Assembly (NCBI GenBank): GCA_947260005.1 | Contig: CAMYOL010000070.1 | Coordinates: 1-53,277, forward strand | Direction of reading: 5' to 3' | Source of the DNA: an uncultured Ectothiorhodospiraceae bacterium | Lineage (GTDB): Bacteria; Pseudomonadota; Gammaproteobacteria; UBA6429; Thiohalophilaceae | DNA length: 53,277 bases | In this document: one piece after another, positions 11,779 through 29,717 of the stretch | Position numbering within the stretch: position 1 is the stretch's first letter | Layout: every line of letters starts with the position of its first letter | The notes under the pieces: model-generated | What the model was told of the DNA's origin: nothing | The model's input: the letters and a program-made list of their open reading frames with translations, nothing else | Databases searched by the model: none | Translations under genes and position numbers: made by a program

Positions 11779-12213
11779 ATGCAAATAATTTTAGGCTGGA
11801 TTTTGATTGGTTTTGGTGGTTTGCTTTATCTTGTCCAGATCATTTCATCATTAAATTTTTCTTTGGCCCAGCGTCTTGGCCTGCAAGAGAAACCCGAAAC
11901 TTCGGATAGGCTATTACAAAGGTCTGAGCGCTATACCGCCTACTGGGATCTATTGACGCTGGTATGGTTGCCGTTTGCTGGCGTTTTAATGGTGATGGAT
12001 CATCGTTGGTGGCCTGTTGTGTCATTGATCGGTGGCGCAGTTTATTTTGATACCGCGGGTAGAGAAGCGGTAAAGAACTTAAGTTTTCAGCATGAAGGTT
12101 TAAGGGTTGGTTCGGACAAAGAACGACGACTCTTTTTTGCAAGTTATCTGGTGATGGCCGTTATCGCCGCTGTGGTTATTGTGTTTGCGTTATCTACACT
12201 AATGAATCTATAA
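11779..12213 (+). CDS. integral membrane protein of unknown function
   Basis: A 144-residue protein with about four transmembrane segments (IILGWILIGFGGLLYLV, LLTLVWLPFAGVLMVM, WWPVVSLIGGAVYF and YLVMAVIAAVVIVFAL). ATG 11779 has GAGG 7 bases upstream; GTG 11773 is in frame but less likely. I recognise no family. The next gene starts 14 bases downstream, and the following methyltransferase gene is also close, so the three probably form one transcript. Confidence 0.6.
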   Translation: MQIILGWILIGFGGLLYLVQIISSLNFSLAQRLGLQEKPETSDRLLQRSERYTAYWDLLTLVWLPFAGVLMVMDHRWWPVVSLIGGAVYFDTAGREAVKNLSFQHEGLRVGSDKERRLFFASYLVMAVIAAVVIVFALSTLMNL

Positions 12214-15131: not shown

Positions 15132-15664
15132 TAGCTCGTCTCTGCGTTAAGTTTTTTGATCAGAGGAAGGACTGTGTTGTTGATTTCGTCCGGAAATAGC
15201 GGGCCGATGTATTTAAAACGAATGATACCTTTTTTATCGATAATGAAGGTTTCAGGTACAGCATAAACGCCATAGTCAATACCGACACTGCCGTCGTTAT
15301 CGGTGACCACGACACGATAAGGGTTGCCGTGTTTTTTCAATAAAGCTTTCGCCAGACGGTCATCGTCACGATAATTCAGGCCAATTAAATTGATCTGTTC
15401 GTCTTTAGCGAGGTTAAGCAAATAGGGATGTTCTTTTCGGCAGCCAACGCAATCGGATGTCCAGGTATTTAATATCCAGACTTTACCTTTTAACAACTTA
15501 GGCCCAAACGATACTGTTGGCGCATAGAGGCGTGGTAATGAGAAGTCCGGTGCAGGTTTATCGATTAAGGGCGATGGTACATAGCGAGGATCATTTTGCA
15601 GACCAATCGCCAGGAAAACGACCAATATAATAAAGATACCCAGCGGAATGAGGTAACGTAACAT
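15131..15664 (-). CDS. ccmG: thiol:disulfide interchange protein CcmG/DsbE
   Basis: A 177-residue periplasmic thioredoxin-like protein tethered by an N-terminal helix (YLIPLGIFIILVVFLAIG). The family pattern is clear: KPAPDFSLPRL, KVWILNTWTSDCVGCRKEHP, NYRDDDRLAKALLKKHGNPY and the cis-proline loop GVYAVPETFIID. The active site is CVGC. The residue before the first Cys, nearly always Trp in WCPTC-type CcmG, is Asp here (SDCVGC). It supplies reductant for apocytochrome c thiols. Start and stop abut ccmF and ccmH. Confidence 0.93.
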   Translation of the reverse strand: MLRYLIPLGIFIILVVFLAIGLQNDPRYVPSPLIDKPAPDFSLPRLYAPTVSFGPKLLKGKVWILNTWTSDCVGCRKEHPYLLNLAKDEQINLIGLNYRDDDRLAKALLKKHGNPYRVVVTDNDGSVGIDYGVYAVPETFIIDKKGIIRFKYIGPLFPDEINNTVLPLIKKLNAETS

Positions 15665-17646
15665 TATGCCGGCTCTCCAACTGCGGAATTATTTTCAGCT
15701 GTCGATGGTTTGCTGCGTCTATTTTTCTGGCGATAACGTTTATCAAAGCTTGCGATTAAACCACCTAACGACATGATAACCGCACCTAACCAGATCCATC
15801 TTATGAACGGCTTATGGTAAAGGCGAAGTGTCCAGGCACCTTCCTGGCCGCGCGATTCACCCAGGGCAACAAACAGGTCGCGAGTGATGCCTGCATCAAT
15901 AGCCGCCTCTGTCATTGGATTTTGTTGTGAATAATAAATTCTTTTCTGCGGTTTCAAGGTGGTAATGACAGAATCATTTTTAGTAATCACAACATCACCT
16001 TCGTGGCCACGATAGTTTGGCCCGGTGACCCGTTTTGCGCCATTGAACGTATAGGTATATGTGTCCATGGTATAAGACTCACCCGGCTTGAGCAGTACAT
16101 CTTTTTTGCTGGAGTAATTCGAAGTCAGGGTGATGCCGATACAAAATATTACCACGCCAAAGTGTGCGATGTGAGTACCATAGTAAGAGGGCGGGGTCTT
16201 TTTTAACGTGTTCAACGATAGTGATTGAGTTTTATAGCGTTTCATAAAGCTGATCACAGTCATGATTAATACCCACCAGGCCAGGGTGAGGCCGAGTAAC
16301 GCATAGAAAGAGAAATAAGGCATCAATAGAACACAAATGACACTTAACACGAAACTAATTACGAATGGGATCAATCGTTTTAACTGGGCATTGGTATTAT
16401 CTTTTTTCCAGCGCAATAGTTGTCCGAAGCCTAATAAAATGGCCAGCGGGGTGCCGAGTAGTACAAATATAAAGTTAAAGAACGGAAAGCCAACCGAGTA
16501 TTTACCCAGATCCAGTGCAACGGTAAATATTGGGAACAAGGTACCACCTAATATTCCGATAGCCAGCACCACTAAAATAACATTGTTAAGTAATAGCGCG
16601 GTCTCACGAGACAGCATGGAAAATTGACTGTGTGATTTAATCATCGGAGCGCGAAACGCAAACAGCGCGAGTGAGGCACCGACCACAAGGGCAAGGAAGA
16701 TTAAAATGAATACGCCTCGTTCTGGATCGCTGGCAAAGGCGTGTACCGACGTTAATACACCCGAGCGAACCAGGAAAGTGCCAAGCAGACTTAATGAGAA
16801 AGTGAATATCGCCAGCAGTGCCGTCCATGATTTGAAACTGCTGCGTTTATCGGTCACGGCCAGTGAATGAATTAATGCGGTACCGACTAACCAGGGCATG
16901 AAGGACGCATTTTCGACTGGATCCCAGAACCACCAGCCACCCCAACCTAACTCGTAGTAGGCCCACCAACTACCGAGCGTGATGCCCAGGGTTAGAAAGA
17001 TCCAGGCAACATTGGTCCAGGGTCGTGACCAGCGGGCCCAGGCCGAATCAAGTCGGTTGCCCCACATCGCGGCGATTGCAAATGCAAAGGCCACTGAAAA
17101 ACCAACATAACCCATGTATAACATGGGCGGGTGAATGGCCAGACCAAAGTCCTGAAGCAAAGGATTTAAATCACGTCCTTGCGCAGGCGCGGGAAAGATT
17201 CTTTCAAATGGGTTGGAGGTCATGATCATAAATAGTAAAAAGCCGATGCTGATCCAGCCCATGATCGAGACCACGCGTGACAGCATTAAAGTGGGTACCT
17301 GGCGACTAAATAGAGTCACGGCAAACGACCAGATACTCAGTACCAGTGCCCATAACAATAACGAACCTTCGTGCGCGCCCCATACCGCAGACACTCGGTA
17401 TATCAGTGGCAAATTGGTATTGGAATTATTAGCCACATAAGCAACGGAGAAGTCGTGCACGACGAATGAATACATTAAGCAGGCAAAGGACACTGCTAAT
17501 GCCAAAAATTGTGCCTGGGCTGCTGGCCGGGCAACGACAATCATATTCGGTATGTTGAGGAAGGTTCCGATCAAAGGTAGCACGGACTGAATAATGGCAC
17601 AGACCAGCGCAACGACTAAGGCAAAATGTCCAAACTCTGGAATCAT
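15664..17646 (-). CDS. ccmF: haem lyase CcmF
   Basis: A 660-residue polytopic protein with about 14-15 transmembrane helices. The haem-handling WWD motif is present as WGGWWFWDPVENASFMPW (about 240-258), along with conserved histidines in DFGLAIHPPMLYMG and GTALIHSL and the late GTHIAHFGV. With CcmH and CcmI it forms the complex that ligates haem from CcmE to apocytochromes c. Length and motifs are normal. It overlaps ccmE by 4 bases at its start. Confidence 0.97.
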   Translation of the reverse strand: MIPEFGHFALVVALVCAIIQSVLPLIGTFLNIPNMIVVARPAAQAQFLALAVSFACLMYSFVVHDFSVAYVANNSNTNLPLIYRVSAVWGAHEGSLLLWALVLSIWSFAVTLFSRQVPTLMLSRVVSIMGWISIGFLLFMIMTSNPFERIFPAPAQGRDLNPLLQDFGLAIHPPMLYMGYVGFSVAFAFAIAAMWGNRLDSAWARWSRPWTNVAWIFLTLGITLGSWWAYYELGWGGWWFWDPVENASFMPWLVGTALIHSLAVTDKRSSFKSWTALLAIFTFSLSLLGTFLVRSGVLTSVHAFASDPERGVFILIFLALVVGASLALFAFRAPMIKSHSQFSMLSRETALLLNNVILVVLAIGILGGTLFPIFTVALDLGKYSVGFPFFNFIFVLLGTPLAILLGFGQLLRWKKDNTNAQLKRLIPFVISFVLSVICVLLMPYFSFYALLGLTLAWWVLIMTVISFMKRYKTQSLSLNTLKKTPPSYYGTHIAHFGVVIFCIGITLTSNYSSKKDVLLKPGESYTMDTYTYTFNGAKRVTGPNYRGHEGDVVITKNDSVITTLKPQKRIYYSQQNPMTEAAIDAGITRDLFVALGESRGQEGAWTLRLYHKPFIRWIWLGAVIMSLGGLIASFDKRYRQKNRRSKPSTAENNSAVGEPA

Positions 17647-18092
17647 GGTTGACGATTTCCTTGCGGTTTATTTTTATTCTTCAGGCTGTCAGCGACTTCC
17701 TGCGGCATATAGGTCTCATCGTGTTTAGCAAGAACCTCATCCGCGACAAAGACACCGTCGGTATTTAGTTTGCCCTTAGCGATGATGGCCTGACCTTCGC
17801 GGAATAAATCAGGCAGGATGTCGGCAAAACTAATCGTGATGGTTTTTTCGTAATCGGTTACATCAAATTTAACTTCAACCGACTGCGTGGATTTTATAAC
17901 GCTGCCGTCTACCACCATGCCACCGATGTTAAATCGTTGTCCGGTAGGGGCTTTACCCGCTGCAACTTCACTCGGGGTAAAGTACAGCATTAGATTTTCT
18001 TTAAAGGCAAGAGCGGCAAAACCGCTGGCAATAAACACACCAATTAGCATGATTACAATTAATTTTAGGCGGCGGGCGCGGGCTGGGTGCAT
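17643..18092 (-). CDS. ccmE: periplasmic haem chaperone CcmE
   Basis: A 149-residue protein with an N-terminal anchor helix (LIVIMLIGVFIASGFAALAF) and an OB-fold beta domain. The haem-binding motif is intact: LAKHDETYMP, in which the His forms the covalent bond with haem and the Tyr is an axial ligand. CcmE accepts haem from CcmC and delivers it to CcmF. Its ATG overlaps the TAA of ccmD in TAATG, so translation is coupled. Confidence 0.96.
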   Translation of the reverse strand: MHPARARRLKLIVIMLIGVFIASGFAALAFKENLMLYFTPSEVAAGKAPTGQRFNIGGMVVDGSVIKSTQSVEVKFDVTDYEKTITISFADILPDLFREGQAIIAKGKLNTDGVFVADEVLAKHDETYMPQEVADSLKNKNKPQGNRQP

Positions 18093-18250
18093 TAGTCTTG
18101 CTCCTGTTCTAGCATTTGTTCGATACGTTTACGGGTATTTTTATTTTCGATAATGGGTAAAACCAGACTTAGCGTCAGTACCAGCGCGGTTATACCGTAT
18201 GCGGACCAGATGTATGCGGCATAACCGCCCATATGTAGAAACTCAGTCAT
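18092..18250 (-). CDS. ccmD: haem exporter protein CcmD
   Basis: A 52-residue protein found by reading the gap between ccmC and ccmE. It begins MTEFLHMGGYAAYIWSAYG, has one transmembrane helix (ITALVLTLSLVLPII) and a charged tail (ENKNTRKRIEQMLEQEQD). The GGY..YIW.AYG pattern is the CcmD signature. CcmD stabilises holo-CcmE with the CcmABC complex and helps its release. The start overlaps the end of ccmC by 8 bases and its stop overlaps the start of ccmE. Confidence 0.93.
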   Translation of the reverse strand: MTEFLHMGGYAAYIWSAYGITALVLTLSLVLPIIENKNTRKRIEQMLEQEQD

Positions 18251-18992
18251 TGTTTTTTACCTTAACGATGTTCTTTACCCAGTTACTGCGACGTTCTCGC
18301 CATAATAATTCATTACGGCTGCGTAATAATAAAACGATGATATAAAACAGCTTGAAGGCCACCGCCATGATTAATAAAGGGATCAGCATCCGGGTGTCAA
18401 TTGATGGCGCGTCAAATTTGGATACCGTTGGCCCTTGATGCAAAGTATTCACGAAAACGACCGAGTAGTGGATGATCGGGATATTCACGACGCCCACTAA
18501 GGCGAGGATGGACACCGCTTGTGCGGCCTTGCGCTTGTCTTCGATGGCGCTGTATAAACCGATGATACCTATATACAGGAACAACAATAGTAATTCTGAT
18601 AACAGCCGCGCGTCGCCCCATTCCCAGTAGGTACCCCAGGTCGGTTTACCCCATATTGAACCGGTTACCAGCGCAATGAAGGTAAAGCTGGCTCCAATGG
18701 ACGCGCTGCTGAGCATCATGATTTCAGACAGTTTAATATGCCAGATCAGCGCAATGGCTCCACTGACGGCCATCACGACATAAACAAACATGGACATCCA
18801 GGCGGCCGGTACATGGATGTAGATAATGCGGAAGCTATCTTTTTGTTGATAGTCGGCCGGCGCGTAAACCAGGCCACCATATAAACCAATCACAAACAGT
18901 GCAAAGCAGGCGAATGCAAGCCAGGGTAACCACAAACCCGACCACCGGTAGAAGGTGGGTGGGGAACCTAATTGATGAAACAGTTTATACAT
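18243..18992 (-). CDS. ccmC: haem export/handling protein CcmC
   Basis: A 249-residue membrane protein with six transmembrane helices. The tryptophan-rich WWD motif is WGKPTWGTYWEWGDARL (about 125-142), and the flanking histidines are in IIYIHVPAAWMS and NIPIIHYSVVF. CcmC attaches haem to CcmE in the periplasm. It follows ccmB with no gap. Confidence 0.97.
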   Translation of the reverse strand: MYKLFHQLGSPPTFYRWSGLWLPWLAFACFALFVIGLYGGLVYAPADYQQKDSFRIIYIHVPAAWMSMFVYVVMAVSGAIALIWHIKLSEIMMLSSASIGASFTFIALVTGSIWGKPTWGTYWEWGDARLLSELLLLFLYIGIIGLYSAIEDKRKAAQAVSILALVGVVNIPIIHYSVVFVNTLHQGPTVSKFDAPSIDTRMLIPLLIMAVAFKLFYIIVLLLRSRNELLWRERRSNWVKNIVKVKNND

Positions 18993-19658
18993 TTAACTTA
19001 CACTCATCCTTAATGCCGCCGAGCTTGCCCACGGTGCCAGGCTTAATGATAACACTAACATTCCCATCATAAGGCTTAATGAGGCCATGACTGGATAACC
19101 AGCCATATAGGTGGTCACGGTCTGGCTGGCGAAAATTAATACTGGCACATACAGTGGTAGTATTAGTAACGATAAAATGACGCCGCCACGGCGTAAACCG
19201 ACCGTTAATGCGACACCGATCGAACCAATCGCACTTAATATAGGCGTTCCTATTAATAACGTTAATAACAGGATCTTGGTTGCATCGAATGATAGACCCA
19301 GCATTAACCCTAAGATCGGCGCGACTAAGGCGACTGGCAATCCAGTAATTATCCAATGGGCAAGAATCTTGGCTAATACTAATAGCGAAGTAGGTTGTGT
19401 GCTGATGATCATTTGTTCTAATGCGCCGTCTTCCATATCCGATCGAAACATATGATCAAGACTGAGTAGTGCCGAAAGTAAGGCGGCAATCCAGACAATC
19501 GCCGGTGCAAGTGAGACCAGCACGGCAGGTTTGGCTCGCATACCGAGCTGAAACAAAACGATCACCAGTACAAAAAACAACATCGGATTGAGTAACTCAG
19601 CCCGGTGCCTGATAGCGAGTAACAAATCGCGCTTCAATATAGTTGTAAACACATTCAT
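18993..19658 (-). CDS. ccmB: haem ABC exporter permease CcmB
   Basis: A 221-residue protein with six transmembrane helices. Conserved features are the N-terminal FTTILKRDLLLAIRHRAELL, the cytosolic DMEDGALEQMIIS and the end APWASSAALRMSVS. It is the membrane part of the CcmAB ABC transporter that drives holo-CcmE release. It overlaps ccmA by 4 bases. Confidence 0.96.
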   Translation of the reverse strand: MNVFTTILKRDLLLAIRHRAELLNPMLFFVLVIVLFQLGMRAKPAVLVSLAPAIVWIAALLSALLSLDHMFRSDMEDGALEQMIISTQPTSLLVLAKILAHWIITGLPVALVAPILGLMLGLSFDATKILLLTLLIGTPILSAIGSIGVALTVGLRRGGVILSLLILPLYVPVLIFASQTVTTYMAGYPVMASLSLMMGMLVLSLSLAPWASSAALRMSVS

Positions 19659-20329
19659 GACAGATTCAGATCACGGCAGCGATCTTCATTTATATTTAGA
19701 TCCTGATGAGAGGTAACAATGGCCATGCCATTACGTTGTAAGTGTGCGTTGATCATGTTTTCAACGATTTCGACGCCTTGCTTATCCAATGCCGTCAGGG
19801 GCTCATCAAGTATCCAGATTGAGGTTTCATTCAATAAACAACGTGTAAGGGCGAGTCGCCGGCGTTGACCCGCGGATAAATCATGGGCGAATGTATATTT
19901 TTTTGTCTTTAAACCCATGTCAGATAATGCCTGATCAAGATTAATTGGGTCGAGATTAAGGTTTTTGGTTTTTTGTTGTTTGCCAGTGGCCAGCACCGCA
20001 GCAACCTTTAAATTTTCGGTGACACTTAGATCCTGCTTCACCCCATCGGTATGACCAACATAACTTAACTGGGTGTGATATTCATTACGCTGTTGATGAA
20101 TTGGCGTTCCCCCCCAGCTCACTTCACCTTTATCGGCCGTGGTCAGGCCACACAGAATGCGCAGCAATGTAGTTTTACCGGAGCCATTTGCGCCCCTGAG
20201 GTGTAGCATCTCACCGGGTTCGAGCTCAAAGGCGATGTTTTCAAATAGCCAGCGATCCTGTTTTTCTGCGCAGAGGTTTTCTGCAGATAAACGGGCGGCT
20301 TGTGAATAATGCTGGGAATCTCGTGCCAT
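19655..20329 (-). CDS. ccmA: haem ABC exporter ATP-binding protein CcmA
   Basis: A 224-residue ABC ATPase: Walker A RGANGSGKTTLLR (about 45-57), signature LSAGQRRRLALTR, Walker B IWILDEP and the switch His in VTSHQDL. An N-terminal extension of about 12 residues precedes the conserved LSAENLCAEK. First gene of the nine-gene operon ccmABCDEFGHI, in which every junction overlaps or abuts. The 150 bases to the divergent Fe-S flavoprotein gene must hold the ccm promoter. Confidence 0.96.
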   Translation of the reverse strand: MARDSQHYSQAARLSAENLCAEKQDRWLFENIAFELEPGEMLHLRGANGSGKTTLLRILCGLTTADKGEVSWGGTPIHQQRNEYHTQLSYVGHTDGVKQDLSVTENLKVAAVLATGKQQKTKNLNLDPINLDQALSDMGLKTKKYTFAHDLSAGQRRRLALTRCLLNETSIWILDEPLTALDKQGVEIVENMINAHLQRNGMAIVTSHQDLNINEDRCRDLNLS

Positions 20330-20480: not shown

Positions 20481-21785
20481 ATGACTGAAGCAGAAATGTA
20501 CAAATGGGCCGTCTATACGTTTCCGGTCCTCTTTATGATGGGTTACGCACTAATGCGCACCCTGAGGACAAAAAAAAACCGCAAAGTCCTGTCGGATGCG
20601 ACCAAAGCGGGTTTGACCGAGCCCGCCTCATTACACCCTATAATTGATAAGGGTATGTGTATTGGCTGTGGTGCCTGCGTCAATGCCTGTCCTGAAGGTA
20701 AGATCCTCGGTCTGATTAAGGGCAAGGCGGAACTCATTAGTCCAACGCACTGCATTGGTCACGGTGCCTGTAAACGAGCTTGTCCACTGGATGCGATTAC
20801 ACTGGTTTTCGGTACTGAAAAGCGGGGCGTGGACATTCCGCTGGTAAACGACAATTTTGAGACCAATGTCCCCGGTCTATTTATTGCCGGTGAACTAGGC
20901 GGCATGGGCTTGATTCGTAATGCCTGTGAGCAGGGTCGGCAGGCCATGGACGGCATAGCTCAATATATTGGCAAGCATTCGTCTGAATATGATGTGGTGA
21001 TTATCGGTGCGGGGCCTTCAGGTTTTTCGGCGACCCTGGCGGCTCATGAGAAAAAAATGAAATATAAGACACTCGAGCAGGATTCGCTCGGCGGTACCGT
21101 GTTTAAATTTCCTCGAGGCAAGCTGGTGATGACCGCGCCGGTCAAACTACCTATCGTCGGCAAGGTTAATTTCAAGGAGACAACGAAAGAGATCCTGTTG
21201 AAATTTTGGAACGAGGTGGAAAAAAAGACCGCTATCAAGATTAGTTATCGGGAAAAAATGGACAACATAACCCCAAGCGGTAATGGATTTATTGTGACAA
21301 CACCGAAAGGTGAATACAAAACCAGGGCCGTGTTACTGAGTATTGGCCGGCGCGGTACACCCCGAAAACTGAATGTTCCCGGAGAAGATCAGCCTAAAGT
21401 CGTGTACAGCCTGATTGACCCTGAGCAGTATCGGGATCAACATGTACTGGTGGTTGGCGGCGGCGATGCAGCGCTGGAAGCGGCGACCAGTATTGCAGAA
21501 GAAGATGGCACTACAGTTAGCATCTCATATCGAAGTGAAGCATTTTCTCGTGCGAAAGAAAAGAACCGCAAAAAGATTGATGAGGCTAAAAAGGCGGGCA
21601 GACTTAATGTCTTGATGAGTTCAAATGTAAAGGACATTCAAAAGGATAAGGTTGTGCTGGATCAACAGGGTAAGAAAATTGAATTGCCTAATGACGGGAT
21701 AATTGTTTGTGCCGGCGGGATACTGCCAACGCCGTTTCTCAAAGAGATTGGTATTCAGGTTGATACCAAACATGGGACCGTTTAA
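20481..21785 (+). CDS. membrane-anchored 4Fe-4S/FAD/NAD(P) oxidoreductase with permuted domain order
   Basis: A 434-residue protein. One N-terminal helix (YTFPVLFMMGYALM) anchors it. Residues about 50-105 are a two-cluster ferredoxin: the first motif is CIGCGACVNACP, the second CIGHGACKRACP with His for the second Cys. Next is a segment FETNVPGLFIAGELGGMGLI (about 130-150), which in thioredoxin-reductase-like enzymes is the C-terminal end of the FAD domain. Only then come the FAD motif VIIGAGPSGFSA and the NAD(P) motif VLVVGGGDAALEAATS, and the protein stops after GGILPTP, just where that segment would normally follow. The flavin domain thus looks circularly permuted. No CXXC disulfide site is seen. 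It probably passes electrons between NAD(P)H and a membrane partner. It is divergent from ccmA and 14 bases before the ankyrin gene. Confidence 0.8.
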   Translation: MTEAEMYKWAVYTFPVLFMMGYALMRTLRTKKNRKVLSDATKAGLTEPASLHPIIDKGMCIGCGACVNACPEGKILGLIKGKAELISPTHCIGHGACKRACPLDAITLVFGTEKRGVDIPLVNDNFETNVPGLFIAGELGGMGLIRNACEQGRQAMDGIAQYIGKHSSEYDVVIIGAGPSGFSATLAAHEKKMKYKTLEQDSLGGTVFKFPRGKLVMTAPVKLPIVGKVNFKETTKEILLKFWNEVEKKTAIKISYREKMDNITPSGNGFIVTTPKGEYKTRAVLLSIGRRGTPRKLNVPGEDQPKVVYSLIDPEQYRDQHVLVVGGGDAALEAATSIAEEDGTTVSISYRSEAFSRAKEKNRKKIDEAKKAGRLNVLMSSNVKDIQKDKVVLDQQGKKIELPNDGIIVCAGGILPTPFLKEIGIQVDTKHGTV

Positions 21786-21799: not shown

Positions 21800-23764
21800 A
21801 TGAAAAAATCCCTCAGTTTTATATTAATTTGTTTGTTGTTTAGCAGTTCGCTCATTGCGGCGACGATTAATGATGCTAAATATGCAATAAAAAAACGTGA
21901 CTACGCAAAGGCCGTTAGAATTCTTAAACCTATCGCCAGAAAAGGCGATGCCAAGGCGCAATACCATCTCGGTATTTTGATTCGTAATGGACAAGGTACC
22001 AGGCAAAATTCTGAGTTAGCGGCGAAGTGGTTATTGAAGTCAAGTAAGAAAGGTTATGACAAGGCACAGTATGCTTTGGGCGTTATGTATCTCGAGGGAA
22101 ATGGGGTACCAGAGGATCAGGTTAAAGCTAAAAAATGGTTGAGCATGGCCGCCGAGCAGGGGCACCGAAATGCAAAACGGCGTTATGATAATATAGGTAA
22201 AGTAGAAAATAGTCGTGATGACCTTGCGACACTGAATGAAAAACTATTACTGGCCAGCTTACGTGGAAGGACAGATGAGGTCTCAGGGCTCATTTCTTCC
22301 GGGGCAAAGATAAATACCCGGGATGATTTGGGTAACACGCCGCTTATTATTGCCGCCAGTAATGGCCGCACTTCCACAGTAAAATTATTACTTGGTAAAG
22401 GCGCTAACGTCAATTCAAAGAATAAAGATGGTGAGTCTGCATTAATGCAGTCGGCAGGCAATGGTCATATCGGATCTGTAAAGTGGCTGATAAGTTATCA
22501 GGCCGAAGTTAATGCGACAGATAAAAAAGGTGTTACTGTGATGATGGCCGCGGCACGTGAAGGACGTAAAGATGTCATCAAGTTATTAAAGGGCAGGGGA
22601 GCTAAGTTAAATACCACGGATAAGTCTGGATTGACAGCTTATGCATGGGCAGTGAAAAGGAATCAGCCTGCCAGTGCGAAATTGTTGCTTAAGCTGGGTG
22701 CCAAGAAGCCCAAAAAATCTAGGAAAAAACGCAAACAACAAGTCGTTACCTCGACAAAAGGAACGGCCTTCGAAGGCTGGACACCCTTAATGGTTGCCGC
22801 CTGGCAGGGACATACCAGTAGTGTTAAGACTTTATTAAGAAAACGACCGAATATAAATAAACAAGATAGCGAAGGCTATACTGCCTTATGTCGAGCTGCG
22901 CAAAAAGGCCATGTTGACGTTACCCGTCTTTTATTAAAAAAGAAGGCCAACCCGAATTTAAAGAATAAAAATGGCATGACACCATTAATGCATGCAGCGC
23001 GAGAAGGTCACTTAAAGGTCGTGAACGAGCTGCTTAAAAGCAATGTCAAAATCAATAGTGTCAGTAAAAAAGGTGAAACGGCCCTGATTATCGCGGCCAG
23101 GAATGGGCACAGCAAAATAACCGCCCGGCTGGTTAGTTCAGGTGCGAATATAAACAAAGCGCAAAAGGACAGGATGAATGCGTTGTTGTGGTCTGCCAGA
23201 GGCGGTGATCTTAAAACATTTAAAATTCTGATTGAAAATGGTGCGAACGAGAAATCTAAAACAAAAGAGGGTGAAAATGCGCTTTGGTTAGCAGGAATTA
23301 ATGGAAAGGCGAATATCGTTAACTATTTACTCTCTCGATCCAAAAAGCCAACTCATTATGAGTTTGCTAACACCTTGCTGGTTCGTGTATCGGCACTTGG
23401 TCATTTAAATGTGGTTGACGTATTATTGAAAAAAGGAATTCATCCGGATACAAAATCCAGAAAACAAAATACGGCGTTAATGTTGGCATCGGATGAGGGC
23501 CATGTGAAAATTGTAAAGCGGTTATTAAAGAAAAAAGCAAAATTGGATATAAAAAATAAACATGGGAATACCGCGCTTATATTGGCATCGAAAGGTGGAC
23601 ATTTAGAGGTTGTAAACCTGCTGGTTGAAAGTGGTGCGGATGTTAAAATTCGTAATAAAGACAAACAAACGGCCATTATGTATGCGAAAAGTGCCGGTCA
23701 TGTTGAGATTGAGGCAGTGTTACAAAAGGCCCGTGACGATCAAAAGATTTTTGGTATTTTTTAG
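21800..23764 (+). CDS. exported Sel1-repeat and ankyrin-repeat protein
   Basis: A 654-residue protein with a cleavable signal peptide (MKKSLSFILICLLFSSSLIAA). Residues about 25-130 hold Sel1-like repeats (AQYHLGILIRNGQGTRQNSE, AQYALGVMYLEGNGVPEDQ). From about 145 to the end there are some 14 ankyrin repeats of 33 residues (e.g. GNTPLIIAASNGRTSTVKLL), with a Lys-rich linker near 300-320 (KKPKKSRKKRKQQ). Both repeat types bind proteins, so a periplasmic scaffold is likely. It lies 14 bases after the Fe-S flavoprotein gene and is probably in its operon. Its stop overlaps the stop of the convergent beta-barrel gene by 4 bases. The Lys/Arg-rich surface would suit an acidic partner, but the partner is not known. 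Confidence 0.85.
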   Translation: MKKSLSFILICLLFSSSLIAATINDAKYAIKKRDYAKAVRILKPIARKGDAKAQYHLGILIRNGQGTRQNSELAAKWLLKSSKKGYDKAQYALGVMYLEGNGVPEDQVKAKKWLSMAAEQGHRNAKRRYDNIGKVENSRDDLATLNEKLLLASLRGRTDEVSGLISSGAKINTRDDLGNTPLIIAASNGRTSTVKLLLGKGANVNSKNKDGESALMQSAGNGHIGSVKWLISYQAEVNATDKKGVTVMMAAAREGRKDVIKLLKGRGAKLNTTDKSGLTAYAWAVKRNQPASAKLLLKLGAKKPKKSRKKRKQQVVTSTKGTAFEGWTPLMVAAWQGHTSSVKTLLRKRPNINKQDSEGYTALCRAAQKGHVDVTRLLLKKKANPNLKNKNGMTPLMHAAREGHLKVVNELLKSNVKINSVSKKGETALIIAARNGHSKITARLVSSGANINKAQKDRMNALLWSARGGDLKTFKILIENGANEKSKTKEGENALWLAGINGKANIVNYLLSRSKKPTHYEFANTLLVRVSALGHLNVVDVLLKKGIHPDTKSRKQNTALMLASDEGHVKIVKRLLKKKAKLDIKNKHGNTALILASKGGHLEVVNLLVESGADVKIRNKDKQTAIMYAKSAGHVEIEAVLQKARDDQKIFGIF

Positions 23765-26157
23765 AAATCGTAAATATATCCAAAGAACAGATAAAAACTA
23801 TCTTCAGATTGATCTGTTAATCCTCCCGAAGTATCCGACGAATCATAACCCATGTCTAATTCGAGTTTAAACGATCGGGTCACATTGTAATTTGCAATTA
23901 AACGAGGTCGATAACTGATACGTGAGGTACCGTTATCATTATCTCGATGATCGATAACCAGGCGAGGGTTAAGACGCCATGTCGGGTTCAAATTAAAGTT
24001 AGTACTGTAATTAAACTGGATGACATTCGAGCTTGCCAGGTCGAGAAAACGAGCGCCAAAAAGAGTGATGTCGTTAGCAGAGAGCAAATTATTGATGACC
24101 AGGGTTGTATTGAAAACAGTTTCGATTCCTGTGCCCTCTATTGCATCGACACCACCCGATGCAACGGTACCATCTAGTTCAGAAATGGTTATGTCACCAT
24201 TTAATTGATACCGTTCAGACAGGAATGTTGAAGCAGATACAGTGAAGCCTGTGTAGGTTCCGGTTCTATCTTCTGCGAGCTGATAGATTTCATCATCGGT
24301 ATACAGAGCTTTTAATTCATCCATACTGGCAACCCCCTGACCAATAAGCGCATTGTTGGTTGTGAGTAATGGACTTTTACGATGGTCCGCAACAATATTA
24401 AGGGTTGAGTTTGCTTTGTTGCGCCAGGTCGCATTGAATCTAAATTGATTGACTACAGAGTAAAAAACATCGTAATCCAGTAAAGCAAAATAGGAAGAAG
24501 TTTCATTAATAAACTTTACTTCAGTTCCAATAGCCTGGCGATCGGTTAAGCCGTTATTTGTCTGGTTTAAGGCGTAGAATTTAAAATCGGCGTCAGAAAT
24601 AAGTGCTTCCATGTCATAACTTAATCCAAAAAATTGTCGATCAGTGTTTAAGCTATCCTTCAGGAAAAAATCAACCGGGTAACCTGCAAGGAAGTTGATT
24701 TTGTGATCAGTACCGATACGTTTATTAAAAATAATACCGTCAAAGCGACCAAGCACACCGTCACTGCTGTGTGACTGACGGCCAATGCGGGCACCATAGT
24801 CATCATCCCGTTTTGAGATATCGTAATAAAAAGTATGCAGTCGACCATCGGTCTTATCATCATCATTTAGAAAGTCAGTGCGATGATTGCCTCCAATATC
24901 AAAGCGTTGATTGAATTCAAATCCTCGTTTACGTCCGGTGAATAATATATCAGATGCTAAAGAACTATCGGTCTGAAAACTCGGCGTCACCTCATTAGAG
25001 GTATATTGGGTTCGATAAAATTGAAACAGACTTCCAAAAAAATCCCACTCGGGTTCTTTGGTTTTGGTTGGTTCGCCTTTTAATTTTGGTTTTGGACGAG
25101 AGGCGGCGGTGAGCAGACCAAGTAAACGTTGGTGTACACGTTCGGCATCTTCTCCTTCAGGATAAAGTTTCATGTATTTTTGATATTCTGCTTTGGCATG
25201 AGCAAACTGGCCATTTCGTTCCCGAGCCAGACCCAAAAGCTCTCTGCTGACTTTGTGATATCTATCGTTATCTAATTCAAGTATGCGGGTGAACAGTCTG
25301 ATTGCGCTTTTATAGTCTTTATCCAGCATCGCCTGACGGGCGCGTTCCATTAGTTTATCAAGTTTGTCAGGTTTTTTTGCGGAGGTAGATTTTTGCCTGC
25401 TTTTAACCGATTTTAATTTGGTATTAAGAAACCAGGCTTCTGCTGTATCGCGTCGTTTTGGGTTGATCTTGCTGATCCAGCCTTGAGGGTAAAAGGGCTT
25501 CAGGTTTTTTAGGTTAGCTTTAGCTGCAGAGGGTGAATGAAAGTAGCCGAGGTGCAGTGAATATGTTGTGTCAAATTGTGCCAGGACCTCGGTGGTGTAT
25601 ATATCGTAGCGTTTAAATTTTTTAAGAGCCGGTTGATTCTTGGGGTCAATAGGTGAATTGGATGATTTTAAATTCAAAACATAGATTGGTAAATTCGATC
25701 TAAGTGCAGCTGGCACCGGTTTTCTGGTTGATCGGGCTTTTATATTTTTTAGGCGAATAGTCAGGTTTTTTCTGTCCCGCCCCATTTTAATTGCAAAATC
25801 AACCGAACGAGAAAACTCGATCGTGAGTACACCATTTTCACCAGGGAACTGCTCATAAGAAACGCGTGTAGCGGGGTTATCGGTTTTTTCTGAGACCAGT
25901 AATTGATCTCTGATCCGGTTAGATATTTGGGTTGAAGGAAACAGCTCCTTCATGCGAATTTTCAGTGTTGTTGCGTCTTTTGCTGGAAAGTGCGAGATAT
26001 ATTCCATCGGGACATTAAATTCGACATTGAGCTGGCCGTCATTTTCTTCATAAAAAAATGTCTGGTCTGCGAGGATGGTGTTCGTTGCAGATAGCGCGCT
26101 ATGTGAGTAAAAGGCAATAGCGACCAATAGTACAAAACTAATGTGATTAAATTTCAA
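23761..26157 (-). CDS. outer-membrane beta-barrel protein with SPOR-like and TPR-containing N-terminal part
   Basis: A 798-residue exported protein. The only plausible start is TTG 26157, which gives a signal peptide ending HSALSA. Domains: an AMIN-like beta domain (about 30-150), a SPOR-like segment (about 185-235, YSLHLGYFHSPSAAKANLKN), a Lys-rich linker, TPRs (about 268-345, DKDYKSAIRLFTRILELDND), then from about 385 a region of alternating amphipathic strands with aromatic girdles, ending in FYLFFGYIYDF. A C-terminal Phe is the outer-membrane assembly signal. The length of the last part suits a barrel of 20 or more strands. No CXXC like that of MtrB is seen. It is the last gene of the cytochrome operon and may be the sheath or pore of a trans-outer-membrane conduit. 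No established name fits. Confidence 0.75.
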   Translation of the reverse strand: MKFNHISFVLLVAIAFYSHSALSATNTILADQTFFYEENDGQLNVEFNVPMEYISHFPAKDATTLKIRMKELFPSTQISNRIRDQLLVSEKTDNPATRVSYEQFPGENGVLTIEFSRSVDFAIKMGRDRKNLTIRLKNIKARSTRKPVPAALRSNLPIYVLNLKSSNSPIDPKNQPALKKFKRYDIYTTEVLAQFDTTYSLHLGYFHSPSAAKANLKNLKPFYPQGWISKINPKRRDTAEAWFLNTKLKSVKSRQKSTSAKKPDKLDKLMERARQAMLDKDYKSAIRLFTRILELDNDRYHKVSRELLGLARERNGQFAHAKAEYQKYMKLYPEGEDAERVHQRLLGLLTAASRPKPKLKGEPTKTKEPEWDFFGSLFQFYRTQYTSNEVTPSFQTDSSLASDILFTGRKRGFEFNQRFDIGGNHRTDFLNDDDKTDGRLHTFYYDISKRDDDYGARIGRQSHSSDGVLGRFDGIIFNKRIGTDHKINFLAGYPVDFFLKDSLNTDRQFFGLSYDMEALISDADFKFYALNQTNNGLTDRQAIGTEVKFINETSSYFALLDYDVFYSVVNQFRFNATWRNKANSTLNIVADHRKSPLLTTNNALIGQGVASMDELKALYTDDEIYQLAEDRTGTYTGFTVSASTFLSERYQLNGDITISELDGTVASGGVDAIEGTGIETVFNTTLVINNLLSANDITLFGARFLDLASSNVIQFNYSTNFNLNPTWRLNPRLVIDHRDNDNGTSRISYRPRLIANYNVTRSFKLELDMGYDSSDTSGGLTDQSEDSFYLFFGYIYDF

Positions 26158-26299
26158 AATATTAAATTCTTACAATGCTATCGAGACGTTAGCAATGTTC
26201 CTTCAAGTGTCCCGGATTGATTATTAATAAATAGATAGATAACTGTATATCTGTTAAAAATCAGGCCTAGGTATTTAGCCAGTTGTATATTTTTTATAG

Positions 26300-27184
26300 T
26301 CACAATACTGGTGTCCAACGAGTCGTACTATGGCAGTCATCACAGGTATCCGCACTTGGCACATGATTCTGACCCTTTCCGACCGCAATGGTACCGTTAT
26401 GGCAGCTAACACAAGTGCCTATAACTTCACCATGATCAACTGACGCGGGAATCCAGCCAGAGGTGCGGTGACAGTTTTCGCAAATATTACTTGTTTGTAT
26501 GTGGCCTGCGTTTTTACCGGCTGCGCGGGAGCCGTCATGACAGTTAATGCAAGCTGAAGTAATACCTGTGTGATCAAATCCAGCCGGGATCCAGCCAGAG
26601 GTTCGGTGGCAATCTTCGCAGAGATCACTGGTAGGTAAATGATTAGCATTTTTACCTGTCGATATTGTGCCATTATGGCAGCTAACACAACTTGCCGTTA
26701 TCCCACTGTGATCAAAGCGTGCCGGAATCCAGGCAATGGTGCGATGGCACTCATCACAGCGATTATGACTTTGGATATGATTGGGATTTTTCCCGGTAGA
26801 TCTGATTCCGTCGTGGCAGGTCACACATGAGCCTGTAATTGACAGGTGATCCATGCGTGCGCCGAGCCAGCTGACTTCAGTGTGGCAGTCGTCGCACTGC
26901 TCACTCGATTCTATATGGTTGACCGGTTTTTTAGTGATCGCGATTAATGTTCCCTGACCATGGCAACCCTCACATTTTTTTGACGTGCCTTTGAATATTC
27001 CATGTCTGTGGCAGGTTTCACAGCGGATCCGCGAATGGTTTCCACTCAACAGATAACCCGTCTGGTCGTGATCAAATTCAGCAAAGCTATCCTCGGTGAA
27101 TAATAACAACAGGCAGATTGTGATTAAGCTGAACAAAAAGGTTTTATTCTGCCGGTTTGTTGTTTTGGCTATCAATGAACCCAT
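26300..27184 (-). CDS. periplasmic 11-haem c-type cytochrome
   Basis: A 294-residue protein with a signal peptide (FLFSLITICLLLLFTEDSFA) and 11 CXXCH motifs: CETCH, CEGCH, CDDCH, CVTCH, CDECH, CVSCH, CEDCH, CINCH, CENCH, CVSCH and CDDCH. From about residue 80 the sequence is a 46-residue unit repeated about four times, each with two haems and the pattern GWIPA.FDH.GIT..C..CH (one haem per about 23 residues). Spare histidines in FDH and NH positions could be distal ligands. A GAGGAA ribosome-binding site precedes the ATG. It follows the 21-haem gene by 29 bases. Such close haem packing fits an electron wire in the periplasm. Confidence 0.92.
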   Translation of the reverse strand: MGSLIAKTTNRQNKTFLFSLITICLLLLFTEDSFAEFDHDQTGYLLSGNHSRIRCETCHRHGIFKGTSKKCEGCHGQGTLIAITKKPVNHIESSEQCDDCHTEVSWLGARMDHLSITGSCVTCHDGIRSTGKNPNHIQSHNRCDECHRTIAWIPARFDHSGITASCVSCHNGTISTGKNANHLPTSDLCEDCHRTSGWIPAGFDHTGITSACINCHDGSRAAGKNAGHIQTSNICENCHRTSGWIPASVDHGEVIGTCVSCHNGTIAVGKGQNHVPSADTCDDCHSTTRWTPVL

Positions 27185-27213
27185 CTTGTTTCCTCGTCTT
27201 TATTGATGTTGCG

Positions 27214-28809
27214 TCAACGACGCATGCGCACATCTTTAAAATCCTTCGTGCTATGACAACGATCACAGCGCGGCCCGAATTGTCCGTTATGGTTATCGTC
27301 AGCACGATGACAATTAAGACAATTTCTAGGCTTCGATTTCACTTTGCTAACAGCGGTTACATGACAACTGTGGCAATGTACTTTTTTATGTGCACCATCA
27401 AGTTTAAACTTGGATTCTTTATTATGTTCAAAACGCCAGATAGACCAGCCATTCGGATTATGACATCTTTGGCAATTAGTGCCTAACGTTCCTTTGTGTA
27501 CATCATCCTGTTTGTGACAGCTATTACATTTTAGGGAGGTATCCTGATAGTTATTATCAAGGTGGCACTCTTCACAGGGTACGATCGAGTGCAGTCCTAC
27601 CAGGGGAAACTTGGTGATGTCATGGTCAAAGCGCAGTTTACTGCGCCAGCCTTTTTCGTTATGACACTTATCACATTTTTTGCCCTGTTGTCCTTTATGA
27701 ACATCATCGGTCTTATGGCAGCTGTAGCAATTCTTTTTAAGTTTAACTTTATAAATATTTTTTTTATGGCAGCTGGTGCAGGTGGTGGTGGCATGTTTTC
27801 CACGTAACTTGAATTTCGTTTTTTTATTGTGATCAAAGCGATTTTTATACCATGATTTTTCGTTGTGACAGGTCTGACATTTTTTGCCAAAGCGTCCCTT
27901 ATGCGAATCGTCATGTTTATGGCAGGTAATGCAGGCCATCTTTAGTTTGAACTTGTAGGGGTCCTTTTTATGGCAGCTTTTGCAGTCCTGGTTTTTATGC
28001 TGGCCGCGTAATGGGAAATCGGTATGTTTGTCATGATTAAAGCCCCGTGTTTTCCAGTTTTTCGTCGTGTGACACTTTTGACATTGGGTGCCATTACGAC
28101 CGCGGTGTGAGTCGTCGCCTTTGTGACAGGAAATGCAGGTCTTGGGCGTTTTAATATAACGATCGGCTATATGACAGGCACTGCATTCGGTTTTCTTGTG
28201 TTTTCCGGTGTGAGGGAATTTGGATTTTTTGTGCTTGTAGTGAAATTCCCGCCAGTTATTTTCTGAATGGCATTTGTCACAGCGCTTTGCGATCTTACCC
28301 ATCGTTTTAGCTTTATGAGGGGTGTCTTTTTTGTGGCAGCTGTAACAGTCACGGGGCGCTTCACGATATTTCTTTTTTGGTTTATGGCAGCTTTCGCAAC
28401 TAATTTTTTTGTGTTCGCCTTTTAGCTTAAAGTCTGTGTACTGGTGATCAAAGGTCAGTTTATTGAGCTTAACCACATCATACTTTCTGCCCTTATGTTC
28501 GGTATGACAGGTCGAGCACTCTTGTATATGTATGGCCTTTTTACGGCCGTGATATCCGATACGTTTATTTAAGTCATCTCTGACTTCTTTATGACAGTCT
28601 AAACATTTGGATTTTTGTTTCTTGCGATCAAATCGATCATGACATTTAATACATTCATTTTGATATTTTTTATGCCCTTCGATGACATCGCCGGGGCTGA
28701 TCAGTGACTCGATAGCCGTCGCCTGTACCAGGCTGCTAAGCATCGACAAAACACCGAGCAAAAAACAGAATAAAAAAAACGAATAAGTACTGCTCATTTT
28801 GTCGGGCAT
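27214..28809 (-). CDS. periplasmic 21-haem c-type cytochrome
   Basis: A 531-residue protein with a signal peptide (FFLFCFLLGVLSMLSSLVQATA) and 21 CXXCH motifs by direct count. From about residue 150 it is built of roughly 68-residue units with three haems each, of the type SCHK.DD.HKG..G..C..CH....W....F.H, then TKF.L.G.H....C.SCHKK..YK.KL. Five full units and a partial one are visible. It is very rich in Lys and His, so strongly basic with ample distal haem ligands. It probably relays electrons across the periplasm. ATG 28797 (MSSTYSFFL) is an alternative start. It lies 5 bases after the membrane cytochrome b gene, clearly in one operon. Confidence 0.93.
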   Translation of the reverse strand: MPDKMSSTYSFFLFCFLLGVLSMLSSLVQATAIESLISPGDVIEGHKKYQNECIKCHDRFDRKKQKSKCLDCHKEVRDDLNKRIGYHGRKKAIHIQECSTCHTEHKGRKYDVVKLNKLTFDHQYTDFKLKGEHKKISCESCHKPKKKYREAPRDCYSCHKKDTPHKAKTMGKIAKRCDKCHSENNWREFHYKHKKSKFPHTGKHKKTECSACHIADRYIKTPKTCISCHKGDDSHRGRNGTQCQKCHTTKNWKTRGFNHDKHTDFPLRGQHKNQDCKSCHKKDPYKFKLKMACITCHKHDDSHKGRFGKKCQTCHNEKSWYKNRFDHNKKTKFKLRGKHATTTCTSCHKKNIYKVKLKKNCYSCHKTDDVHKGQQGKKCDKCHNEKGWRSKLRFDHDITKFPLVGLHSIVPCEECHLDNNYQDTSLKCNSCHKQDDVHKGTLGTNCQRCHNPNGWSIWRFEHNKESKFKLDGAHKKVHCHSCHVTAVSKVKSKPRNCLNCHRADDNHNGQFGPRCDRCHSTKDFKDVRMRR

Positions 28810-28814
28810 ATTTT

Positions 28815-29717
28815 TTAATACATGTGTACGGCAATAACATGGACAATCCCTGTTACGACAAGCATGATAAACAGTGGTAAATGAAAAACATGCCAGAATG
28901 AAAACAGGCGCGCATAGACAGTAAGCTGGCTGGTTTTTTTCAAACAGAAGAAATAATCACGTAAGTACTCTTTCGATTGTTTTTTAAAGTCATTAAGCAT
29001 TTCGTTGCCCCAGTTATTTGCATAGGCCTGTTTCTTTAAGTCTGTCAGCAATGACCATGTAATATGTTTTATTGTTAACTTTGAGCGTACGGCTATCAAT
29101 GGCATAAAAAGCAGGTGTAACAGGAAAAAACGAGGTTTGAGCATGAATTTCTCATATCGTTTGATTTTCTTAATAATACGAGGTGATAAGGAAATGTGTG
29201 CACCCAGATTACCTTTTGTTAGTTGTATGTCGTGGCGCAAATCTTTTAGAGATGCCATTTGGCCGTATAATCCATAGTGGATGCGGGTATAAAAAAATCG
29301 ACCGACCAAACCACTTCCTGCAACCAATAACATTGAAAACAGGGCGAGGTTACTGTTGGTTGAACCTAAACTAAAATTAGAATGAAAAAGAATAAGTACT
29401 GGGCCAATCACACCAAGTGCCATATGCAGTTGGAACCATCGTTTTACGCTCACCAGGTTTCTCATCGCCTTAATCGATTTGCGTAACGGGTAAAACAGCA
29501 GAAACAGCATTACCGAACCGCCAATAATTCCAAGGGCATATCCCCAGCCATCAGCGGCATTCAGGTAGCTTTCATCACGGCCGCGCCAGCCGATGATCAG
29601 CAAAAGGCTGAAAAATATAGTATTGGCCCAATTCCACAGGCGTTGTGACCAATATGAGAGACGCTCGGTGCGACTAAGCGATTCTTTAGGTCGCAGTTGT
29701 TCATTACGGGTATCCAC
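28815..29717 (-). CDS. inner-membrane b-type cytochrome-like protein
   Basis: A 300-residue protein with about six hydrophobic segments: IFFSLLLIIGW, WGYALGIIGGSVMLFLLFYPL, LHMALGVIGPVLILFHSNF, LALFSMLLVAGSGLVGRFFY, FFLLHLLFMPLIAV and LFIMLVVTGIVHVIAVHMY. Histidines sit at haem-like positions within helices (QLHMALGV, LILFHSNF, FWHVFHLPLFI and GIVHVIAVH), as in cytochrome b561/ferric-reductase-type domains. It is probably the quinol-side or cytosolic-side entry to the multihaem cytochromes. It is the first gene of the run cytochrome b, 21-haem, 11-haem, beta-barrel. CRP-like sites lie upstream. I cannot assign it to a named enzyme. Confidence 0.75.
   Translation of the reverse strand: MDTRNEQLRPKESLSRTERLSYWSQRLWNWANTIFFSLLLIIGWRGRDESYLNAADGWGYALGIIGGSVMLFLLFYPLRKSIKAMRNLVSVKRWFQLHMALGVIGPVLILFHSNFSLGSTNSNLALFSMLLVAGSGLVGRFFYTRIHYGLYGQMASLKDLRHDIQLTKGNLGAHISLSPRIIKKIKRYEKFMLKPRFFLLHLLFMPLIAVRSKLTIKHITWSLLTDLKKQAYANNWGNEMLNDFKKQSKEYLRDYFFCLKKTSQLTVYARLFSFWHVFHLPLFIMLVVTGIVHVIAVHMY

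What the first reader, a model, noticed from the sequence alone, without database searches (positions are those of the whole stretch)
23761..29717. Candidate trans-envelope electron conduit: cytochrome b, 21-haem, 11-haem and beta-barrel operon
Four same-strand genes with gaps of 5, 29 and 142 bases encode an inner-membrane protein with paired in-helix histidines, two exported multihaem cytochromes (21 and 11 CXXCH by count) and a large protein with a barrel-like C terminus ending in Phe. The order goes inner membrane, periplasm, outer membrane. Porin-cytochrome conduits such as MtrCAB do a similar job with a decahaem in a barrel, but here the barrel protein also carries AMIN-like, SPOR-like and TPR parts and lacks the MtrB-type CXXC, and the cytochromes are repeat-built (68-residue three-haem and 46-residue two-haem units). 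That combination is not one I know. Function in extracellular or periplasmic electron transfer is inferred.
Basis: partly seen in the sequence, partly recalled or inferred. Interest (0 to 1): 0.82.

Follow-up and report, generated by a model that had tools for sequence, protein, structure and literature searches.

The report
PCC3 electron conduit with NAD(P)H-enzyme partner
The four genes are a member of an already described but untested family of haem-protein 'wires' (PCC3) thought to carry electrons through both bacterial membranes, and its relatives nearly always carry a neighbouring enzyme gene, apparently overlooked, which suggests that the wire is connected to the cell's NAD(P)H rather than to its membrane quinones.

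Summary
In detail: four minus-strand genes (gaps 5, 29, 142) encode a membrane protein with two WX3HX13H motifs, a 21-haem and an 11-haem exported cytochrome, and a large exported protein ending in Phe. It is a new member of a known, functionally untested kind.

What I did not find in print is the convergent gene pair beside it: NFOR (two Fe-S motifs plus a circularly permuted thioredoxin-reductase-like FAD/NAD(P)H enzyme) and a Sel1/ankyrin protein. In 274 genomes of the class, 34 have the PCC3 membrane protein and 33 of these have NFOR; of the 240 others, 2 do, both on truncated contigs with multihaem genes. In three genomes with two copies of each, the copies track one another. Distant, PCC4-like membrane proteins mostly sit beside an analogous flavo-Fe-S protein (11 of 14). 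I therefore favour a conduit wired to NAD(P)H, most likely exporting electrons, over the published quinone-linked, electron-uptake model. Direction and chemistry are inferred; the barrel is supported only weakly.

The parts
28815..29717 (-). PCC3-type inner-membrane protein (presumed di-haem b, 300 aa, GTG start)
   Evidence: WX3HX13H at 94 and 275, SGXXG at 135, invariant in 17/17 aligned; hydrophobic segments; no Pfam or NCBIfam hit at E <= 0.1
27214..28809 (-). Exported 21-haem c-type cytochrome, presumed periplasmic wire (531 aa)
   Evidence: 21 CXXCH, Cytochrome_C7 repeats, 25.3 aa per haem and hydrophobic leader
26300..27184 (-). Exported 11-haem c-type cytochrome, presumed outer-membrane/extracellular wire (294 aa)
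   Evidence: 11 CXXCH, 46-residue repeat, 26.7 aa per haem, hydrophobic leader; uncut homologues carry 9 to 69 haems
23761..26157 (-). Exported TPR (SPOR in some relatives) protein with presumed C-terminal outer-membrane barrel (798 aa, TTG start)
   Evidence: SPOR in 4 and TPR_16 in 7 of 10 aligned proteins, C-terminal Phe 10/10, soft strand-like pattern; model failed
20481..21785 (+). NFOR: 2x Fe-S plus FAD/NAD(P)H oxidoreductase, probably membrane-anchored, circularly permuted thioredoxin-reductase-like; conserved partner of the inner-membrane protein
   Evidence: Pfam Fer4 and Pyr_redox, motifs, permutation test, co-occurrence
21800..23764 (+). Exported Sel1/ankyrin-repeat protein, usual companion of NFOR
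   Evidence: Sel1 and ankyrin; found with NFOR in 38 of 45 NFOR loci
13315..20329 (-). ccmABCEFGHI cytochrome c maturation genes, divergent from NFOR (context, not counted as part of the conduit)
   Evidence: CcmA, B, C, F by families; E, G, H, I named from the sequences (recalled)

Best explanation
The locus is a PCC3 porin-cytochrome conduit together with its cytoplasmic redox partner. Shown: gene set, haem motifs, histidine motifs, NFOR cofactor motifs and conserved co-occurrence. Inferred: NFOR takes hydride from NAD(P)H onto FAD, passes single electrons through its two Fe-S clusters to the cytoplasmic-side haem b of the inner-membrane protein, then to the periplasmic-side haem b (a split version of what NOX/FRE/MsrQ-type membrane reductases do; recalled), then to the 21-haem wire, then to the 11-haem cytochrome in or on the barrel, and out to an extracellular acceptor. 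Membership in PCC3 about 0.93; NFOR as a working part of the system about 0.8; NAD(P)H as the cytoplasmic carrier about 0.65; outward flow as the main direction about 0.5.
For: PCC3 match: He et al. 2017 (passages and sections 15, 16). NFOR coupling: 33 of 34 genomes with the membrane protein (E<=1e-40) have NFOR (E<=1e-100), against 2 of 240 without it (Fisher p 5e-39, which ignores kinship); both exceptions (G213, G134) are contig ends with multihaem genes near NFOR. Phylum sample of 299 genomes: 4 have the membrane protein and the same 4 have NFOR (G000 and G122 are also in the first sample). 31 of 37 copies of the membrane-protein gene have NFOR within 11 kb on the same contig. On an Emticicia plasmid (Bacteroidota) NFOR starts 4 bases after the membrane-protein gene and is followed by 23- and 40-haem cytochromes. 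Three genomes hold two copies of each; all 6 copies have the same nearest neighbour in both trees, and tree distances correlate over 41 pairs (r 0.73; 0.62 without Emticicia; best of 1000 permutations 0.41). NFOR has Fe-S motifs, a GGGDxAxE and a YRxxxFxRxK-like stretch, and no CxxC in the flavoprotein part (10 of 10), i.e. not disulfide chemistry. 11 of 14 distant, motif-complete membrane proteins sit near an ~800-aa Fe-S protein with an NFOR-like flavoprotein part; 0 of 4 motif-incomplete ones do. The host also has an MtrAB conduit with a NapC-type cytochrome, so a second, differently wired conduit is plausible.
Against: No function of any PCC3 has been measured in what I read. He et al. proposed a quinone link and nothing here excludes it; NFOR could even serve the quinone pool. 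In Sideroxydans CL21 the membrane protein of PCC3 copy 2 was upregulated in cells able to oxidise iron (PMC12442390), which favours a link to iron oxidation. In G037 and G304 NFOR lies elsewhere, beside ccm. In G070 (single-contig genome) NFOR is interrupted by a stop while the cytochromes are intact, and in G226 only an NFOR fragment was found. Two of 14 distant motif-complete loci (L088, L094) show no such partner. Tree correlation is expected from vertical descent alone and no control gene was run. The barrel and the membrane-protein fold could not be modelled.
Confidence: 0.68

Rival explanations
1. PCC3 as published: electrons enter from an extracellular donor such as Fe(II) or a mineral, pass barrel and cytochromes, and the membrane protein hands them to the quinone pool. 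NFOR is a side path, for example to make NAD(P)H by reverse flow.
For: Model of He et al. 2017; PCC3 is found in many iron-oxidising Gallionellaceae and in Leptothrix; in Sideroxydans CL21 the membrane protein of PCC3 copy 2 was upregulated in cells able to oxidise iron; in Sideroxydans ES-1 proteomes a PCC3 porin and membrane protein (Slit_1449, Slit_1446) were detected.
Against: In ES-1 both PCC3 clusters were lower on Fe(II) than on thiosulfate (PMC8788666), and the extracellular cytochrome Slit_1448 stands at 0 in all eight columns of the table seen in PMC12016527. The host here has no RuBisCO large subunit match and no dsrA over cut-off. The quinone model gives no role to a near-obligate NAD(P)H enzyme.
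Confidence: 0.22
2. NFOR serves cytochrome c maturation (reductant or haem handling), and its linkage to PCC3 only reflects the large haem demand of these proteins.
For: NFOR is divergent from ccmABC here and in G037 and G304; maturation genes recur near PCC3 (L101 CcmF and CcmH-like TPR; CcsA in Emticicia).
Against: ccmB is found in 200 of 274 class genomes, and 33 of those 200 have NFOR, so 167 have none; NFOR tracks the membrane protein instead.
Confidence: 0.07
3. A periplasmic system only: the large protein is not a barrel and the cytochromes store or buffer electrons in the periplasm.
For: Barrel model failed; no MtrB/PioB hit; no match to the large protein on the Emticicia plasmid; the strand-pattern test is soft.
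Against: C-terminal Phe in 10/10 aligned proteins, absence of Cys in the window protein, strand-like pattern above the shuffle mean in 10/10 C-terminal parts and reached by at most 7 of 300 shuffles in 6/10; single homologues hit the barrel families Alginate_exp and DUF481.
Confidence: 0.08

Closest known systems
PCC3 (He et al. 2017, PMC5566968; also PMC10734462, PMC8788666, PMC12016527, PMC12442390, PMC13386937)
   Same: Same four components, 21-haem periplasmic cytochrome, variable second cytochrome, low residues per haem, about 300-aa membrane protein with two WX3HX13H and SGXXG.
   Different: The second cytochrome is at the small end (11 haems; published PCC3 median 34, Gallionellaceae 10 to 35). 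NFOR and the ankyrin protein are not mentioned in the PCC3 passages I read.
PCC4 (He et al. 2017)
   Same: Related motifs in the membrane protein; PCC4-like loci read here mostly have a flavo-Fe-S protein near it.
   Different: PCC4 has 4-, 5- and 10-haem periplasmic cytochromes and no extracellular one.
MtrCAB / MtoAB / PioAB
   Same: Cytochrome-barrel conduit through the outer membrane; the host genome has an MtrAB set elsewhere (L114).
   Different: No MtrB/PioB family match for the barrel; the 11-haem protein scores 39.8 bits against a DmsE/MtrA cut-off of 192.2.
NOX / ferric reductase / MsrQ membrane reductases (likeness to NOX and ferric reductase noted by He et al.; MsrQ recalled)
   Same: Two b haems held by HX13H pairs on two helices, driven by NAD(P)H through flavin.
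   Different: No Pfam match for the membrane protein; the NAD(P)H part is a separate Fe-S flavoprotein of the thioredoxin-reductase kind.
YpdA and thioredoxin-reductase-like ferredoxin-NADP reductases
   Same: Flavoprotein domain of NFOR (closest solved: 7a7b, E 2e-42).
   Different: Circularly permuted, fused behind two Fe-S motifs and a hydrophobic N terminus.

Membership tests
[quoted passage not shown]
   Gene set and order, (locations of the products are inferred)
PCC3 | Periplasmic MHC with about 21 haems (published median 21) | tested here: met
   21; 21 in 33 of 43 relatives
PCC3 | Second MHC with variable, often large haem number | tested here: met
   11 here; 9 to 69 in uncut relatives; published range goes down to 10
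PCC3 | 22 to 39 residues per haem | tested here: met
   25.3 and 26.7
PCC3 | IMP of about 300 aa with two WX3HX13H and SGXXG | tested here: met
PCC3 | IMP has five TM helices | tested here: inconclusive
   Hydropathy at 1.6 gives five segments, four of them at the expected TM2 to TM5; the N-terminal one scores only 1.05 and an extra one (192-210) just passes
PCC3 | Porin is an outer-membrane beta-barrel | tested here: inconclusive
   pLDDT 33.6; indirect support
PCC3 | Sequence homology to Sideroxydans Slit_0867 to Slit_0870 | not tested
   No named Sideroxydans sequence was at hand
PCC3 | Extracellular electron transfer | not testable with these tools
   Needs experiment
MtrB/PioB (PF11854, TIGR03509) | Profile match of the barrel | tested here: not met
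   No hit at E <= 0.1; another protein of the same genome scores 443 bits
DmsE/MtrA decahaem (TIGR03508) | Score over cut-off 192.2 | tested here: not met
   11-haem 39.8 bits, 21-haem 17.7 bits
PCC4 | No extracellular MHC; 4-, 5-, 10-haem MHCs | tested here: not met
Ferric reductase/NOX TM domain (PF01794) | Profile match | tested here: not met
   No family at E <= 0.1; HX13H pairs present
YpdA / thioredoxin reductase equivalogs | Score over cut-off | tested here: not met
   158.3 of 339.9 and 83.4 of 343.45 bits

The most novel reading that the evidence does not exclude
PCC3, and probably PCC4, are NAD(P)H-driven trans-envelope conduits: NFOR plus the di-haem-b membrane protein form a split membrane NAD(P)H dehydrogenase that bypasses the quinone pool and pushes electrons straight onto an outer-membrane cytochrome wire, so PCC3 would be an electron exporter rather than an Fe(II) oxidase.
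Probability: 0.45. Interest if true: 0.75.

Novelty: new member of a known kind. Interest (0 to 1): 0.52.

Why it matters
PCC3 occurs in many proteobacteria and is treated in print as a candidate iron oxidase of unknown wiring. A near-obligate NAD(P)H/Fe-S partner gives a concrete, testable cytoplasmic entry point, would turn the expected direction of flow round, and would make PCC3 the first outer-membrane conduit known to me that is tied to NAD(P)H rather than to quinones.

Tried and rejected
AlphaFold2 of the membrane protein (pLDDT 60.1) and of the C-terminal barrel part (33.6), each with a two-sequence alignment (window plus L023), gave no usable models; a Foldseek search with the first had no match at E <= 0.001 and I draw nothing from it. 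PDB sequence search with the membrane-protein profile gave ten hits at E 0.2 to 5.6, mostly coiled coils, taken as chance; the barrel profile hit mainly TPR chains and, weakly, one SPOR chain; the 21-haem protein had none at 0.001. A scan of named genomes returned one relative, L023, whose contig has the length of G010:C45. Plasmid searches gave one record with both membrane protein and NFOR, Emticicia; the 21-haem search gave 37 records, only Emticicia covering 80% of the query in one place; the barrel search none. The idea that NFOR belongs to c-type maturation was rejected as a general rule.

In the tree comparison 41 pairs were used; L053 was dropped because its NFOR is split, and L049, L054, L064 and L076 were not put in (near-duplicates or broken). 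For five pairs NFOR came from another contig of the same genome. The list of 21-haem homologues lacks loci that the overlap rule had hidden (such as L059, L060, L062). The A1 cut-off of 1e-40 was set after seeing the gap (weakest kept 4e-43; next place that is not a piece of a kept gene 3e-19); the A2 cut-off of 1e-100 was set before its search (1e-90 in the phylum sample). Of the 32 weaker A1 places were fetched and read; two more were seen earlier: L042 has a Pyr_redox/cNMP/Fe-S neighbour, L043 shows no NFOR-like gene.

Papers: PMC5566968 sections 15 and 16 read whole, other passages by term search; PMC10734462, PMC12442390, PMC8788666, PMC12016527 and PMC13386937 by passages only. Supplements and figures were not seen. 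That NFOR or the ankyrin gene is unreported for PCC3 rests on these readings and on searches (listings). 'Ankyrin' occurs 0 times in the main texts of PMC5566968 and PMC10734462, 'ferredoxin' and 'pyridine' 0 times in PMC5566968; the other four papers were not searched for these words. He et al. do say that PCC4 clusters and other IMP-MHC clusters often hold another redox protein.
Full report
What is there. Four minus-strand genes lie at 23761-29717 with gaps of 5, 29 and 142 bases. In order of transcription they encode a 300-aa membrane protein, a 531-aa protein with 21 CXXCH, a 294-aa protein with 11 CXXCH, and a 798-aa protein that starts with a hydrophobic leader and ends in YIYDF. They are flanked by hslVU-like genes (names recalled) on one side and, on the other, by two plus-strand genes: NFOR (20481-21785) and a Sel1/ankyrin protein (21800-23764) whose end overlaps the end of the barrel gene by 4 bases; 151 bases before NFOR lie the ccm genes, divergent.

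It is PCC3. He et al. 2017 described a cluster of porin, extracellular multihaem cytochrome, periplasmic multihaem cytochrome (median 21 haems) and a conserved 300-aa inner-membrane protein with five helices, two WX3HX13H motifs and SGXXG, with 22 to 39 residues per haem. The window's membrane protein has WX3HX13H at 94 and 275 and SGXXG at 135, invariant in 17 of 17 aligned proteins including a Bacteroidota one; hydropathy finds the expected TM2 to TM5 but scores the N-terminal segment low. Residues per haem are 25.3 and 26.7. I could not align it with the Sideroxydans proteins themselves. Later papers extend PCC3 in Gallionellaceae and Leptothrix and call it functionally unverified or uncharacterised (passages). 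Expression evidence is mixed: in Sideroxydans ES-1 both clusters were lower on Fe(II) than on thiosulfate, while in Sideroxydans CL21 the membrane protein of PCC3 copy 2 rose in cells able to oxidise iron.

Relatives. Of 58 related genomes (the window's own included) 21 have the membrane protein at E <= 0.001; the three other genomes of the same genus do not, so distribution is patchy. Where contigs are long enough the order membrane protein, 21-haem, n-haem, barrel is usually kept, with NFOR and ankyrin genes alongside. The second cytochrome varies most: 9 to 69 haems in uncut frames.

NFOR is a near-fixed partner. In an even sample of 274 genomes of the class, the membrane protein was found at E <= 1e-40 in 34 and NFOR at E <= 1e-100 in 35; 33 have both. 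The one without (G226) has an NFOR fragment beside the gene. The two with NFOR alone are contig ends: G213 with ankyrin, barrel and 11-haem genes, G134 a 3.5-kb contig with 3- and 4-haem frames. In a phylum sample of 299 genomes 4 have the membrane protein at that level and the same 4 have NFOR, one of them from another class (two of the four are in both samples). Of 37 copies of the membrane-protein gene in the class sample, 31 have NFOR within 11 kb on the same contig (one of them, G070, with a stop inside); one (G226) has the fragment; three (G122, G221, one copy of G137) have it on another contig, which I read as contig breaks; two (G037, G304, one genus) have it elsewhere, beside ccm. G069, G072 and G137 have two copies of each, and all six copies have the same nearest neighbour in the two trees (for one G137 copy NFOR was taken from a second contig). 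On the Emticicia plasmid the two genes are adjacent, 4 bases apart, upstream of 23- and 40-haem cytochromes; no ankyrin gene or recognisable barrel is there.

What NFOR is. All 10 aligned proteins have an N-terminal hydrophobic stretch (mean hydropathy 1.1 to 2.6; 1.27 in the window's) followed by basic residues, so an anchor is probable, not proven. Then come two Fe-S motifs, CxxCxxCxxxCP and a second one with an invariant His in place of the second Cys, CxxHxxCxxxCP (10 of 10; in Emticicia the first motif has Ser for one Cys). The rest is a thioredoxin-reductase/YpdA-like flavoprotein without a CxxC. It is circularly permuted: the segment 112-165 corresponds to the C terminus of the family. 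Moving it behind the core extends the YpdA match to profile 1-313 of 316 and the thioredoxin-reductase match to 1-300 of 300 (165.4 and 91.4 bits); with the segment shuffled they are 150.0 and 76.3 bits and stop at 268 and 252; the native order gives 158.3 and 83.4.

A wider pattern. Distant membrane proteins found at E 4e-12 to 3e-19 sit mostly next to 10-haem cytochromes (13 of 18 loci read), as PCC4 does. Of these 18 (of 32 weaker places), 14 have both WX3HX13H motifs; 11 of the 14 have near the gene an ~800-aa protein with an NFOR-like flavoprotein part (181 to 211 bits) and two Fe-S motifs, a twelfth (L095) is cut by the contig end and keeps an Fe-S part, and two (L088, L094) have none in the stretch read; the four loci without the double motif have none. 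In one further locus (L042) this protein is Pyr_redox, cNMP-binding and 4Fe-4S. He et al. mention other redox proteins in PCC4 and similar clusters, so the presence of such genes there is in print; the link to PCC3 and the motif-dependent pattern are what I add.

Mechanism. The membrane protein with two haem pairs and no Pfam family is best read, as He et al. read it, as a di-haem b electron carrier across the inner membrane. They linked it to quinones. A near-obligate NAD(P)H flavo-Fe-S partner suggests instead NAD(P)H to FAD to Fe-S to haem b to haem b to the 21-haem wire to the second cytochrome at the barrel. NAD(P)H is a low-potential donor, and moving electrons outward across the inner membrane is favoured by the membrane potential, so export is the easier direction (established bioenergetics, not tested). 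The host fits but does not prove this: no RuBisCO large subunit match, dsrA only below cut-off, and a separate MtrAB conduit with a NapC-type cytochrome and a PdsA-like dihaem protein.

Weak points. The barrel is not shown: the model failed; support is the terminal Phe (10/10), no Cys in the window protein, strand-like alternation and single hits to barrel families. The alternation test is soft: all 10 C-terminal parts exceed their shuffle means and 6 are reached by at most 7 of 300 shuffles, but the window's own is reached by 18 of 300, three N-terminal parts are reached by only 12 to 16, and of four soluble controls ANK (32 of 300) and GGDEF (28 of 300) come close, hslU (119) and NFOR (224) do not. 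The role of the ankyrin protein (with NFOR in 38 of 45 NFOR loci) is unknown; a periplasmic scaffold is a guess.

Noticed in passing
L114 (own genome, C59) 3545-11834: A second conduit of the classical kind in the same genome: NapC-type tetrahaem, PdsA-like dihaem, MtrB (443 bits), DmsE/MtrA decahaem (297 bits) and a 1078-aa 11-haem PKD protein.
   Followed up: partly
L113 (own genome, C20) 7686-10610: A 974-aa lipoprotein-like cytochrome with 32 haem motifs and a PKD-like domain, with no other multihaem gene in the 20 kb read.
   Followed up: no
L053 (G070) 1157-6271: A 1704-aa protein with 69 haem motifs in a PCC3 locus, next to a 23-haem one; in the same locus NFOR is split by a stop.
   Followed up: no
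window 20481-21785, residues 91-101: Second Fe-S motif of NFOR has an invariant His in place of the second Cys (10 of 10 aligned proteins), possibly a His-ligated cluster.
   Followed up: partly
L033 379-8814, L023 1568-9756: Upstream of these two PCC3 loci lies a further cluster with 3-haem, 18-haem and 11- or 12-haem genes; in L033 these are c7-type, NHL propeller, 18-haem and a PKD cytochrome.
   Followed up: partly
L101 7823-12016; L038 9981-10934; L044 6770-9856: Cytochrome-maturation genes (CcmF, CcmH-like TPR, CcsA) occur inside or beside these PCC3-type loci.
   Followed up: no
window 51785-52966: Lipoprotein-like protein with a single CXXCH.
   Followed up: no
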